A stretch of DNA of 64,000 nucleotides from Frankia sp. RB7 (GTDB lineage Bacteria > Pseudomonadota > Alphaproteobacteria > Rhizobiales > Xanthobacteraceae), in the NCBI GenBank assembly GCA_030403585.1, contig JAUEPE010000011.1, forward strand, positions 1 through 64,000, read 5' to 3'. A program made the position numbers and the translations under genes. The notes beneath the pieces are model-generated. The model ran no database searches and was not told the DNA's origin. It saw nothing but the letters and a program-made list of their open reading frames with translations. Position 1 is the first letter of the stretch. The number at the start of each line of letters is the position of its first letter. Shown one piece after another: positions 2,528-37,505 of this stretch.

Positions 2528-3229
2528 ATGGACGATTGGATCGATTATTACGACTCGACGCATACGATCTATGTCAGCAAGCTGCATCGCGATTTGCACT
2601 TCCAGATCATCGCGCGGGACATCATCGGCTACATCACCTCGCCCGAGGCGACCGTGCTGGACTATGCCTGCGGGGAGGCGCTGTCGGCGGGCCAGGTCGC
2701 GGCCGCCTGCGGGAAGTTGATCCTGGCCGAGCCCGCGCCTGGCGTACGCGGCCGCCTGATCGCGCGGTTTGCGCCGAACACCAGGATCCGCGTTCGCTCG
2801 CTCGACGACGTCCGCAATATGCAGGACCAGTCGATCGATCTGGTGGTGATGAACTCGGTCGCGCAATACATGACGGCGGAGGAGCTCGATGCCGCGCTCA
2901 TTAATGTCCGGCGCATCCTGAAACCGTCCGGCAAGCTGGTCCTCGGCGATATCCTGCAGCCTCACGTCGGCATGGGGCGAGACGTGATGGCCTTGCTCTC
3001 CTTCGGCCTGCGTCACGGCTTCCTGAAGGATGCGTTGATCGGGTTGGTCAGCACCGCGCTGTCAGATTATCGTCATCTGCGCACGCGCATTGGGCTGAAG
3101 CGCTACAGCGAGGACGAGATCGCGGCCAAGCTGAAGGCGGCGGGCTTCGCCAGCCAGCGTGCCAACACCAATATCGGCCACAACCCGTGGCGTATCACCT
3201 TCATCGCCCGACCGCCTCTGGTCCGTTAA
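2528..3229 (+). CDS. Class I SAM-dependent methyltransferase
   Basis: 233-residue Rossmann-fold methyltransferase. Motif I is VLDYACGEALSAGQ and the post-motif acidic region lies in the ILAEP strand; a VVMNSVAQYM segment and a later RRILKPSGKLVLGDI strand are typical of the UbiE/Methyltransf_11 type. The substrate is unknown. It starts about 105 bases from the divergent dps start, so the two may share a control region. No transmembrane helix. Confidence 0.85.
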   Translation: MDDWIDYYDSTHTIYVSKLHRDLHFQIIARDIIGYITSPEATVLDYACGEALSAGQVAAACGKLILAEPAPGVRGRLIARFAPNTRIRVRSLDDVRNMQDQSIDLVVMNSVAQYMTAEELDAALINVRRILKPSGKLVLGDILQPHVGMGRDVMALLSFGLRHGFLKDALIGLVSTALSDYRHLRTRIGLKRYSEDEIAAKLKAAGFASQRANTNIGHNPWRITFIARPPLVR

Positions 3230-3301
3230 GGTCCTTGGGTGCGTTAAGCTTAACAATTGGCTGAGGTGGCTTGTCGCACCTCGATCGGCAATGATCGCCG
3301 T

Positions 3302-3377
3302 GGCCCGGTGGCGGAAGCGTCTACGCGAGAGCAGTGCATCGCTCTTCATCCTGGTTCAAATCCAGGCCGGGTCTCCA
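3302..3377 (+). tRNA. tRNA-like sequence, degenerate or unusual
   Basis: This 76-base stretch folds like a tRNA with encoded CCA. The 7-bp acceptor stem is GGCCCGG/CCGGGTC with T73 then CCA. The T arm is canonical (CCTGG-TTCAAAT-CCAGG), the variable region is 4 nt, and the anticodon stem AGAGC/GCTCT closes an 8-nt loop AGTGCATC. The D arm is poor (3 bp, no GG pair in the loop). If the loop is read with one extra base the anticodon would be GCA (Cys), matching U73; CAT is the other reading. It may be a tRNA pseudogene, a tRNA-derived repeat or a non-canonical tRNA. Confidence 0.4.
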
Positions 3378-3480
3378 CGCTTCGCCCCTTCGGGGCTACG
3401 CGTGGCGCAGCCACGCAAGCCCCGTAGGGGCGCAGCGTGTCCGGCGTAGCTTGAGCGCAGCGAAAGCGAAGACGGACTTT
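3378..3480. repeat. GC-rich palindromic repeat following the tRNA-like sequence
   Basis: Nested inverted repeats: CCACGC/GCGTGG around GCCCC-TTCG-GGGGC, then GCGTGGC-gca-GCCACGC, followed by a CGTGTCCGGCGTAGCTTGAG-type tract like those scattered between rhizobial genes. No reading frame is supported. It separates the tRNA-like sequence from the convergent arsR gene. Confidence 0.5.
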
Positions 3481-3489
3481 GTTCGCGGC

Positions 3490-3861
3490 TCAATCCGCCT
3501 CCAATACATCACACTCCACAACATGCTGAAGCCTGTCCGCGTCCTTGGCCGCTGACTTGAGCACGGCGTCGAGCAGGCCGGGAAAGCGTGCATCGAGATC
3601 CTCGCGACGCAGCCGCATGAAGCGGTTGGTGCCCGCGACGCGCGTCAGCATCAGGCCGCATTCGCGCAACTTCGCAAAGTGATAGGTGAGGTTCGACTTG
3701 CCGCTGAGCCCATTGAAGTCGCCACAGCAAAGCTCGCTGCTGACAGGTTCCTGCTGGGCGAGTTGGTACACGATCGCCAACCGGATCGGATCGCTCAGGC
3801 AATCCAGAACCATCGGCAGCTCGATCTGCTCGCGGGTGGGGTGGGGAGGCGTGCGGCTCAT
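3490..3861 (-). CDS. ArsR-family winged-helix repressor
   Basis: 123-residue ArsR/SmtB-type regulator. The helix-turn-helix region reads LDCLSDPIRLAIVYQLAQ through LSGKSNLTYHFAKLRECGLM, with the usual wing (RVAGTNRFMRLRREDL). An adjacent Cys pair (ELCCGDF) could be a ligand or redox site but is not the classic arsenic CxCxxC. It is divergent from the MFS gene, and two copies of an 18-bp inverted repeat lie in the shared 113-base gap, so it very probably represses the MFS gene and itself. The start has GGGGATC just upstream. Confidence 0.88.
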   Translation of the reverse strand: MSRTPPHPTREQIELPMVLDCLSDPIRLAIVYQLAQQEPVSSELCCGDFNGLSGKSNLTYHFAKLRECGLMLTRVAGTNRFMRLRREDLDARFPGLLDAVLKSAAKDADRLQHVVECDVLEAD

Positions 3862-3892
3862 GATCCCCGAAGCATAGCGATGCTGGCGTATT

Positions 3893-3910
3893 GTTCAATA
3901 GTTCTTGAAC
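3893..3910. promoter_or_regulatory. Operator copy 1 (arsR side)
   Basis: 18-bp inverted repeat GTTCAATagttCTTGAAC, with one mismatch to copy 2. It begins 32 bases upstream of the arsR start codon. Inferred binding site for the ArsR-family protein. Confidence 0.7.
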
Positions 3911-3940
3911 CAATTGACTCCCTGATCGCCGTACTTGATA

Positions 3941-3958
3941 GTTCAATAAACATTGAAC
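3941..3958. promoter_or_regulatory. Operator copy 2 (MFS side)
   Basis: Perfect inverted repeat GTTCAATaaacATTGAAC. It lies 48 bp from copy 1 and ends 16 bases before the MFS ATG, where bound repressor would cover the transcription or translation start. Confidence 0.75.
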
Positions 3959-3974
3959 ATAGGGATTGTTTGCA

Positions 3975-5144
3975 ATGAGCGTGTTTTGGCTCGCCTTGGC
4001 GGCCTTCGCGATTGGCACCGAAAGCTTTGTTATTGCGGGACTTTTGCCGACGATCGCCAACGACCTCTCGATTTCGGTCCCGGCCGCCGGTCAATTGGTG
4101 ACCGCCTACGCCCTCACCTATGCCGTCGGCTCGCCGATCCTGGCGGTGACGTTGAACAATATCGATCGCCGCACGGTGCTGGCGCTGGCGCTTTCGACCT
4201 TCATCGCCGGAAACCTGTTCGCGGTGATGGCTTCGGACTACGCGCTGCTGCTGGCCTCGCGCATGTTGATGGCGGTCGGGGCCGGGCTGTGCATGCCGAC
4301 CGCGCTTGCCGTCTCGGTCGCCGTCGCCTCGCCGGAACGGCGCGGCCGGGCGGTGGCGCTGGTCACGTCGGGAATGACGGTCGCGACCGTCGTCGGTGTC
4401 CCCCTCGGTAACCTCGTCGGCAGCCTGTTCGGCTGGCGCGCGACGTTCGCCATGGTCGCAATGCTGGGTGCGATCGCGCTGGCCGGCCTGCTCTTTGGGC
4501 TTCCCCGAGGCCTTCCCAAAAGCACAGCTTCGCTCGCCGAGCGGCTGGCCGTGGCGCGTCACGGCAACGTCCTGATCGCGCTCCTCATCACGGTATTATG
4601 GGCGCTCGGCGGCTTCACCATGTTCACCTATTTTGCCGTCCCGCTGCGCGCTTTGGGCTTCGGCGCCACGCACATCAGCCTCGCACTCCTGGTTTTCGGC
4701 GCGGCCGCGGCGATCGGGAACATACTCGGCGGCCTCCTGGCCGACCGGCTCGGCACCGTCGTCACCGCGGCGCTCGGACTGACCGGCATGGCCAGCGCGC
4801 TTTTCCTGCATTCGCTGGTGCTGAAATTCCTCCCCGGGCAGGCGCACTATGCGATCCTGGGTCCGATCTTCCTCCAGGGCGTTTCGGGCTGGGCGTTCTA
4901 TCCGGCCCAGATCGCCAGCATTATCCGGATCGACCCGCAGGCCTCGATGGTCGCGCTCTCCATCAACGCCTCGGCCATGTATCTCGGCTTTGCGATCGGG
5001 GGAGCCTTGGGCGGCGCCGTGCTTGCGGCTTGGAGCCCGTCCGACCTCGGCTGGGTCGGCGGCGCGAGTGTCACGATGGCCCTGCTGGTGCATCTCGCCC
5101 GTGGCTGGCAGGCGCGGCCGAAACCCGTCAAAATTGCCGGTTGA
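3975..5144 (+). CDS. MFS exporter, drug:H+ antiporter-1 type
   Basis: 389-residue, 12-helix major facilitator of the AraJ/PbuE/YdhP kind. The N-terminus [27 protein letters not shown] is typical of this sugar/drug exporter group, and the helix 2-3 loop carries [11 protein letters not shown]. The ATG at 3975 is preferred because AGGGA lies 9 bases upstream; an in-frame TTG at 3966 has nothing comparable. Divergent from arsR and probably repressed by it. The substrate is unknown; an ArsR partner suggests induction by a small toxic molecule. Confidence 0.88.
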
Positions 5145-5287: not shown

Positions 5288-8752
<3,465 letters not shown>

Positions 8753-36253: not shown

Positions 36254-37426
36254 CTAGGCCGCCTTGGCGAGTTGCGCCTTGGTCTCGGCAAAAGCCCAGT
36301 CGATCCACTGGGTCAGGATCTCGACGTCCTTGGCCTCGACGGTAGCGCCGCACCAGATGCGCAGGCCTGCCGGCGCATCGCGGTAATACGCGAAGTCATA
36401 GCCCGCGCCTTCCTTCTCGATCAGCGCGACCAGCTTCTTGGAGAACTCGGCTTGCGCGTCATCCGAGAGCGAGGTGAGCGCGGGATCGGTGAACTTCAGG
36501 CACACCGAGGTGTTGGAGCGGATCGCGGCGTCCTTGGCCAGGAAGTCGATCCACGGCGTCTTCGCCTTCCAGTCGACCAGCACCTTGGTGTTGGCGTCGG
36601 CGCGTCCGATCAGCGCCTTGAGGCCGCCGATCGACTTGGCCCAGTTCAGCGCATCGAGATAATCCTCGACGCAGAGCATCGACGGCGTGTTGATGGTCTC
36701 GCCGACGAAGATGCCTTCGTTGATCTTGCCACCCTTGGTCATGCGGAAGATTTTCGGCAGCGGCCAGGCCGGCTTGTAGGTCTCGAGCCGTTCCACCGCA
36801 CGCGGCGACAGGATCAGCATGCCGTGCGCGGCTTCGCCGCCGAGTGCCTTCTGCCAGGAGAAGGTGACGACATCGAGCTTGGCCCAGTCGAGGGCTTGCG
36901 CAAACGCGGCAGAGGTCGCGTCGCAAATGGTCAGGCCTTCGCGGGTCGCGCTGATCCAGTCGGCGTTCGGCACGCGGACGCCCGAGGTGGTGCCGTTCCA
37001 GGTGAAGACGACGTCGCTTTTGGGATCGACCTTGGAAAGGTCGGGAATTTCACCGTAAGCCGCGTTGAGCTTGGTGACGTCCTTGAGCTTCAATTCCTTG
37101 ACGATGTCGCTGACCCAGCCCTCGCCGAAGGATTCCCAGGCGATCGTGGTGACGGGCTTTGCCCCGAGCAACGACCACAGCGCCATCTCGACCGCGCCGG
37201 TATCGGACGCCGGCACGATGCCGATGCGATAATCGGCCGGCACTTCAAGCACTTCGCGCGTCAGATCGATCGCGAGCTTGAGCTTGGTCTTGCCGACCTT
37301 CGCGCGATGCGAACGGCCGAGCGCTGCGTCCTTGAGATTTTGGGCGTTCCATCCGGGGCGCTTGGCGCAGGGGCCGGAGGAAAAATGCGGCACGTTCGGC
37401 CGCGAAGCGGGCTTCGCTACAGTCAT
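36254..37426 (-). CDS. serC: Phosphoserine aminotransferase
   Basis: 390-residue class V PLP aminotransferase of the alphaproteobacterial SerC type. The PLP lysine is Lys193 ([14 protein letters not shown]), [13 protein letters not shown] is the N-terminal substrate loop and [17 protein letters not shown] is the phosphate-binding region. It converts 3-phosphohydroxypyruvate and glutamate to phosphoserine, the step after SerA. A CCTCCC/GGGGAGG hairpin lies just upstream (37450-37467). Confidence 0.95.
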
Positions 37427-37505
37427 CGTCTACCCTTCCAGATAGTAAGCCTCCCGTTGGGGGGAGGTGTCCCGCCGCGGCTGATACGGGAATCGGGAAG
37501 ACCAG

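What the first reader, a model, noticed from the sequence alone, without database searches (positions are those of the whole stretch)
3302..3377. tRNA-like 76-mer with U73, CCA and an 8-nt anticodon loop
Acceptor and T arms are perfect and a CCA is encoded, but the anticodon loop has 8 nt, the D loop lacks GG, and the most natural reading would be GCA with discriminator U, both tRNA-Cys identity features. This could be a pseudogene, a tRNA-derived repeat or an unconventional tRNA.
Basis: partly seen in the sequence, partly recalled or inferred. Interest (0 to 1): 0.55.

Follow-up and report, generated by a model that had tools for sequence, protein, structure and literature searches.

The report
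Conserved second cysteine tRNA, altered anticodon arm
Bradyrhizobium and many of its relatives keep, usually just upstream of the carB gene, an extra cysteine-type transfer RNA whose anticodon arm has an abnormal shape, which suggests a tRNA that carries cysteine for some job other than ordinary protein synthesis.

Summary
The 76-mer at 3302-3377 is a real gene, single-copy in its genome, neither a pseudogene nor a repeat. It is found in 56 of 59 other sampled genomes of the genus and 155 of 295 of the family, usually between a methyltransferase gene and carB. In Bradyrhizobium the gene is 92% identical pairwise, its flanks 47-50%. All four stems hold in 56 aligned homologues, with two-sided changes in 9 of 22 pairs.

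The "8-nt loop" is mostly not a loop of eight: its first and last bases covary as G-C, C-G, A-U and U-A, giving a 6-bp stem and a 6-nt loop, typically (G/C/A)UGCA(A/U). The window has A.C there.

A normal tRNA-Cys and one CysRS exist elsewhere in the genome. The odd tRNA keeps Cys determinants U73, G34C35A36 and C3-G70 (G2.U71 here), lacks G18G19, and has U51-A63 where the normal one has G51-C63, as in S. aureus non-proteinogenic tRNA-Gly.

Best reading: a tRNA-Cys paralogue charged with cysteine but marginal to decoding. Expression, charging and user enzyme are untested; one other genus lacks GCA. My ten library searches showed no description.

The parts
3302..3377 (+). second tRNA-Cys-like gene (76 nt, CCA encoded)
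   Evidence: ARAGORN; homologues and covariation
3302..3308 (+). acceptor stem 5' strand GGCCCGG, pairs with 3367-3373 (one G.U at 2-71)
3311..3326 (+). D arm GCG / loop GAAGCGUCUA / CGC; no G18G19
3328..3345 (+). anticodon arm: stem AGAGC/GCUCU with AGUGCAUC between. In most relatives the outer two of the eight pair, giving 6 bp + hexaloop
3336..3338 (+). GCA (positions 34-36), preceded by U33 at 3335
3350..3366 (+). T arm CCUGG/UUCAAAU/CCAGG with U51-A63
3374..3377 (+). discriminator U73 and encoded CCA
   Evidence: TCCA in 84 of 84 distinct variants
3283..3295 (+). upstream block gATcgGc.ATGAT conserved in 57 Bradyrhizobium loci, possible promoter core; no E. coli-type sigma-70 match
2528..3229 (+). 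class I SAM methyltransferase gene, the upstream neighbour (synteny; not shown to be a partner)
   Evidence: present without the tRNA
5288..8752 (+). carB, the downstream neighbour (here beyond an ArsR-MFS pair)

Best explanation
The gene is a paralogue of tRNA-Cys held by purifying selection. It is made and matured as a tRNA, is charged with cysteine by the cell's CysRS through U73, C3-G70, G2-C71 (G.U here) and G34C35A36, and because of its 6-bp anticodon stem with a hexaloop, its missing G18G19 and its altered T stem it is used little or not at all in decoding. It therefore serves as a cysteine donor (or reporter of cysteine charging) outside ordinary translation. Shown: gene, structure, conservation, Cys determinants, a normal tRNA-Cys elsewhere, one strong CysRS match. 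Inferred: expression, charging, avoidance of EF-Tu and ribosome, and the unknown user enzyme.
For: Conserved gene at a fixed place. Stems covary, including the extra pair 32:38 with G-C 15, C-G 10, A-U 9, U-A 8, U-G 3, G-U 1, A.C 10 of 56. A model of the family finds in the own genome at E <= 1e-8 only the gene itself and the normal tRNA-Cys; of 27 loci opened from the same search in other families 26 are tRNA-Cys(GCA) by ARAGORN. GCA is in 82 of 84 distinct variants and U73 in 84 of 84. Eight of the 82 have lost U33, a base important for decoding (recalled), while keeping GCA, as expected if CysRS rather than the ribosome reads the loop. Bacterial Cys determinants: passages of PMC9976931. S. 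aureus non-proteinogenic tRNA-Gly lost G18G19 and the strong EF-Tu pair G51-C63: passage of PMC4052509. Here U51-A63 is in 56 of 56 and the own normal tRNA-Cys has G51-C63.
Against: No expression or charging data. All 12 homologues read from genus g35 of another family have loop GGGAAC and no GCA, and L172 has GUGAAA, so Cys charging through the anticodon is not universal. Two of 84 variants have an ordinary 5-bp/7-nt spacing (L155, L174) and could decode. Eleven of 84 still have GG in the D loop. The normal tRNA-Cys of some other genera has C51-G63 (L253, L255), so the EF-Tu argument rests on the Bradyrhizobium comparison. Homologues were found by similarity to the window, which inflates the conservation of acceptor and T arms. 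No user enzyme found: PEARL over cut-off in 0 of 25 genomes, FemAB_like in 25 of 25 with or without the tRNA.
Confidence: 0.45

Rival explanations
1. It works in translation: a minor tRNA-Cys that decodes UGC/UGU with unusual speed, or a recoding tRNA that reads a four-base codon or shifts frame through an enlarged loop.
For: U33-G34-C35-A36 kept in 74 of 84 variants; two variants have a 7-nt spacing; 12 of 71 eight-base variants, the window's among them, have A.C at the extra pair and can be drawn with a true 8-nt loop.
Against: The extra pair 32:38 is Watson-Crick in 53 and G.U in 3 of the 71 and covaries, so the loop is mostly of 6; eight variants lose U33 while keeping GCA; a normal tRNA-Cys is already present (found by DNA similarity in 24 of 26 genomes asked).
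Confidence: 0.22
2. It is not charged and acts as a regulatory tRNA mimic, for example by binding CysRS, a tRNA-modifying enzyme or a nuclease.
For: Genus g35 keeps the architecture with loop GGGAAC and no GCA (12 of 12 loci read); acceptor and T arms are the least variable parts of the alignment, though the search by similarity favours that.
Against: U73 and CCA kept in 84 of 84 variants, and GCA kept in distant variants whose acceptor stems differ, which points to charging with cysteine.
Confidence: 0.2
3. It is a decaying duplicate of tRNA-Cys, or a tRNA-derived repeat.
For: Not reported by Rfam's tRNA model. One decayed copy exists (L075). 14 methyltransferase loci of tRNA-negative genomes show no tRNA there, so it can be absent.
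Against: Conservation against diverged flanks, compensatory pairs and fixed synteny; one match in the own genome.
Confidence: 0.04

Closest known systems
bacterial tRNA-Cys(GCA)
   Same: U73, G34C35A36, C3-G70, D-arm frame GGCGGA...ACGC, CCA; nearest relative in a model search
   Different: 6-bp anticodon stem with 6-nt loop, no G18G19 in most, U51-A63, different acceptor stem; not reported by Rfam's tRNA model
non-proteinogenic tRNA-Gly of Staphylococcus aureus (peptidoglycan bridges)
   Same: extra isoacceptor beside a normal one; G18G19 replaced; strong EF-Tu T-stem pair replaced (passage of PMC4052509)
   Different: Gly not Cys; normal anticodon arm there (recalled); no user enzyme known here
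selC* tRNA-Cys and allo-tRNAs (Mukai et al. 2017, seen through passages of the review PMC7609411)
   Same: minor isoacceptor with non-canonical cloverleaf; selC* tRNA-Cys has U73 and GCA
   Different: those have 8/4 or 9/3 acceptor/T arms; this one is 7/5 and is altered in the anticodon arm
tRNA-Pyl (recalled)
   Same: 6-bp anticodon stem
   Different: CUA anticodon, short D loop, own PylRS; unrelated sequence

Membership tests
canonical tRNA-Cys | U73 discriminator with CCA end | tested here: met
   84 of 84 distinct variants
canonical tRNA-Cys | anticodon G34C35A36 | tested here: met
   present in the window; 82 of 84 variants; absent in 12 of 12 genus g35 loci read
canonical tRNA-Cys | C3-G70 | tested here: met
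   56 of 56
canonical tRNA-Cys | G2-C71 | tested here: not met
   the window has G2.U71, as do 9 of 56; G2-C71 in 47 of 56
canonical tRNA-Cys | 5-bp anticodon stem with 7-nt loop | tested here: not met
   5 + 8 as drawn in the window, 6 + 6 in most; 7-nt spacing in 2 of 84
canonical tRNA-Cys | G18G19 in the D loop | tested here: not met
   absent in the window; GG in 11 of 84 variants
canonical tRNA-Cys | accepts cysteine and decodes UGC/UGU | not testable with these tools
   needs biochemistry
non-proteinogenic (non-ribosomal) tRNA | loss of G18G19 and of the strong EF-Tu T-stem pair relative to the normal isoacceptor | tested here: met
   for the own genome and its normal tRNA-Cys; criterion from a passage of PMC4052509
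non-proteinogenic (non-ribosomal) tRNA | escape from EF-Tu/ribosome and use by a transferase | not testable with these tools
   two candidate enzyme families gave no lead
selC* tRNA-Cys / allo-tRNA | 8/4 or 9/3 acceptor/T arm | tested here: not met
   7/5 in all 56
+1 frameshift tRNA | true 8-nt anticodon loop | tested here: inconclusive
   8 nt as drawn in the window because of an A.C, but the pair forms in 56 of 71 eight-base variants
pseudogene or tRNA-derived repeat | relaxed constraint or many copies | tested here: not met

The most novel reading that the evidence does not exclude
A class of second cysteine tRNAs spread through the order whose anticodon arm has been rebuilt (6-bp stem, 6-nt loop still presenting UGCA) so that CysRS charges it but the ribosome does not use it: a dedicated cysteine donor for an unidentified non-ribosomal pathway of Bradyrhizobium and its relatives.
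Probability: 0.4. Interest if true: 0.82.

Novelty: new variant of a known kind. Interest (0 to 1): 0.62.

Why it matters
Dedicated non-ribosomal tRNAs are known for few amino acids (recalled); a conserved cysteine one in nitrogen-fixing symbionts would point to an undescribed Cys-tRNA-dependent pathway. If instead it decodes, it would be a working tRNA with a six-base anticodon loop. ARAGORN gives most copies ambiguous labels, so it is easily overlooked. The question is directly testable: one deletion, one charging assay.

Tried and rejected
Methyltransferase as functional partner: not supported. Of 24 genomes asked, 15 have a strong match (E <= 1e-55), 3 only weak ones and 6 none. In the 15 strong loci ARAGORN finds a tRNA in 1 (L214, from G163, which has the gene) and none in 14, whose genomes gave no match in the DNA searches. 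In 8 of these 14 carB also lies within the stretch. So the methyltransferase-carB order exists without the tRNA.

Second CysRS: one match at 370 bits; the other three reach 30.4, 22.2 and 21.1 bits, one of them above the family's cut-off of 27; I take them for related synthetases without having tested it.

User enzymes: Lant_dehydr_N (PEARL) over cut-off in 0 of 25 genomes, one weak match in a genome without the tRNA; FemAB_like in 25 of 25, so uninformative.

Mobile carriage: no match in the plasmid collection; one match in a Pseudomonas phage covers 43% of the query inside a protein gene, taken as chance.

Origin from tRNA-Leu: over 43 anchored bases 33 agree with tRNA-Leu(CAA) and 31 with tRNA-Cys, so identity does not decide; a gapped identity ranking put tRNA-Asn first and was uninformative. 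The model search favours Cys.

Promoter and terminator scan: nothing found at 3200-3520.

Literature: ten searches, of which I saw the listings, and passages of four papers (PMC7609411, PMC4842269, PMC9976931, PMC4052509); none showed this RNA. Mukai et al. 2017 is not held under the identifier I recalled. Most subscription papers and all supplements were out of reach.

Full report
What is there. The window lies in a Bradyrhizobium genome: eight named Bradyrhizobium contigs carry the same 25-base core. I take family f1 to be Xanthobacteraceae and the order to be Hyphomicrobiales/Rhizobiales; both names are recalled. At 3302-3377 ARAGORN finds a 76-nt tRNA that it cannot name, while Rfam's tRNA model does not report it. 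The same genome has 49 Rfam tRNAs, all named by ARAGORN, among them one tRNA-Cys(GCA) on another contig, and one strong CysRS match. So the gene is an extra, not the cell's cysteine tRNA.

Conservation. A DNA search finds it in 56 of 59 other genomes of the genus (missing in G006, G041, G051) and in 1 of 40 genomes of other families (whose tally of 58 of 100 includes the own genome). Two of the 56 have two matches, G043 (two identical copies on different contigs) and G039 (one of them partial). In the family it is found in 155 of 295 genomes and 27 of 47 genera, several with two or three matches, and in the order in 32 of 397 genomes; both counts include the own genome. A 28-base pattern of T arm and acceptor, with up to 2 mismatches, occurs in 2 of 385 genomes of the class, the own one and another of its genus. 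In 57 Bradyrhizobium loci (L010 of the 58 was left out) mean pairwise identity is 0.918 for the gene and 0.498 and 0.470 for the 100 bases before and after. Of 133 loci examined, 119 have the same methyltransferase gene upstream, 76 have carB within the stretch held downstream, and 126 have at least one; the seven with neither are L074, L164, L165, L168, L179, L185 and L188. The 133 include the window's own locus, eight named contigs, at least one of which (L040) repeats a genome already counted, and one decayed copy (L075). All 58 Bradyrhizobium loci have the methyltransferase upstream on the same strand.

Structure. I aligned 56 distinct homologues (A1): 50 from the family and six from genus g35 of another family. 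They are a choice. Of the 84 distinct variants parsed, 51 are in A1. The 33 left out are 13 near-duplicates and 20 with another loop length, a doubtful parse or another oddity; at least L167, L168 and L180 of these 20 would have fitted the form. The percentages below therefore favour the 6+6 form. The cloverleaf, entered by hand, is paired in 98.6% of 1232 cells, with two-sided changes in 9 of 22 pairs; 0 of 500 shuffles reach any measure, and sliding the partners by 1-3 columns drops pairing to 22-61%. RNAalifold on the same alignment predicts the same 22 pairs. The pair between the first and last of the eight bases has types G-C 15, C-G 10, A-U 9, U-A 8, U-G 3, G-U 1 and A.C 10. In the wider set of 84, the two 5-bp strands enclose 8 bases in 71, 9 in 11 and 7 in 2. 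Of the 71, the outer two are Watson-Crick in 53, G.U in 3, A.C in 12 and something else in 3 whose parse I doubt, L169, L178 and L188. ARAGORN run on 132 loci gave 132 calls with this kind of ends: 92 labelled by a two-base "gc", 22 by "tgca", 11 tRNA-Cys(gca) and 7 with other labels. So the usual arm is a 6-bp stem with a hexaloop, mostly (G/C/A)UGCA(A/U), and the window is one of those with A.C at the sixth pair.

Relationship. Identity over anchored positions does not separate tRNA-Cys (31 of 43) from tRNA-Leu(CAA) (33 of 43). A covariance model of the family (R1) finds in the own genome at E <= 1e-8 only the gene and the normal tRNA-Cys (run with stricter filters). Of the 44 genomes in that search, 43 are from other families and 38 have a match. 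Of 27 loci opened, 26 are tRNA-Cys(GCA) by ARAGORN, one of them (L266) itself an odd second copy, and in L282 ARAGORN found nothing. With U73, GCA and the D-arm frame, this makes the gene a tRNA-Cys paralogue.

Wider spread. Among 40 one-per-family genomes of the order (G060-G099), 5 had a second match at E <= 1e-8: G064, G083, G087, G093 and G094. In each, one of the two looks like an ordinary tRNA-Cys and the other is odd. Drawn by eye, L282 (G083), L299 (G087) and L205 (G473, picked because) have a 6-bp stem and hexaloops GUGCAA, GUGCAG and GUGCAA; L266, L292 and L295 have 5+7 arms with GCA; L297 and L298 have a long stem. In 40 genomes of other orders of the class, 34 had a match and 1 had two, at E <= 1e-7; I did not read those loci. 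In genus g35 (family f35) 12 of 12 loci have the hexaloop GGGAAC, without GCA; a GyrA-like frame lies beside it in 11 and a CoaD-like frame in 10 of the 12 (gene names by my own reading of the translations). That genus is the strongest evidence against a general cysteine role.

What it does. Published bacterial Cys determinants are U73, G2-C71, C3-G70 and G34C35A36 (passages of PMC9976931). All are present except that 2-71 is G.U here and in 9 of 56. GCA is kept in 82 of 84 variants; eight of the 82 have lost U33, which I take as a sign that the loop is read by CysRS more than by the ribosome (inference). The D loop lacks GG in 73 of 84 by a simple count, and 51-63 is U-A in 56 of 56 where the own normal tRNA-Cys has G-C. 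A passage of PMC4052509 describes replacement of G18G19 and of G51-C63 in the non-proteinogenic tRNA-Gly of S. aureus. The parallel supports, but does not show, diversion from translation; the normal tRNA-Cys of some other genera has C51-G63 (L253, L255), so the T-stem argument is weaker there.

What it is not linked to. The methyltransferase-carB order exists in genomes without the tRNA. Lant_dehydr_N enzymes, some of which use Cys-tRNA (recalled), are over cut-off in 0 of 25 genomes, and FemAB_like is in 25 of 25. Plasmids gave no match and phages one that I take for chance.

Verdict. The commitment to a cysteine-charged, non-decoding tRNA is at 0.45. The kind (dedicated or non-canonical isoacceptor) is known; the hexaloop form in this order did not appear in the ten searches named under Tried and rejected.

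Noticed in passing
window 3378-3443: A G+C-rich hairpin repeat begins directly after the CCA. Of 58 Bradyrhizobium loci, 25 go on with one repeat type (cgcttcgcc...), 31 with another (gccttcgc...) and 2 with neither (assigned by a loose pattern): two different REP-like elements abut the same base of the tRNA.
   Followed up: partly
L199-L204, L206-L211 (genus g35): Homologues beside gyrA- and coaD-like frames with hexaloop GGGAAC in 12 of 12, no GCA.
   Followed up: partly
L173 (G181): Two variants within 1 kb between the methyltransferase and carB: one with 7-nt loop CCGCAAA (C33), one with hexaloop GUGCAA.
   Followed up: no
L075 (G039:C78): A decayed second copy beside a methyltransferase match.
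   Followed up: no
L297 and L298 (G436): Two Cys-like tRNAs whose anticodon stem could extend to about nine pairs around CGCAA (by eye).
   Followed up: no
window 3490-5144: An ArsR regulator and an MFS transporter sit between the tRNA and carB in this and many, but not all, Bradyrhizobium loci.
   Followed up: partly
window 37425-37477 (-): serC leader element (Rfam RF00517, 67.9 bits).
   Followed up: no
L282 (G083): A Cys-like tRNA with hexaloop GUGCAA that ARAGORN does not report.
   Followed up: no
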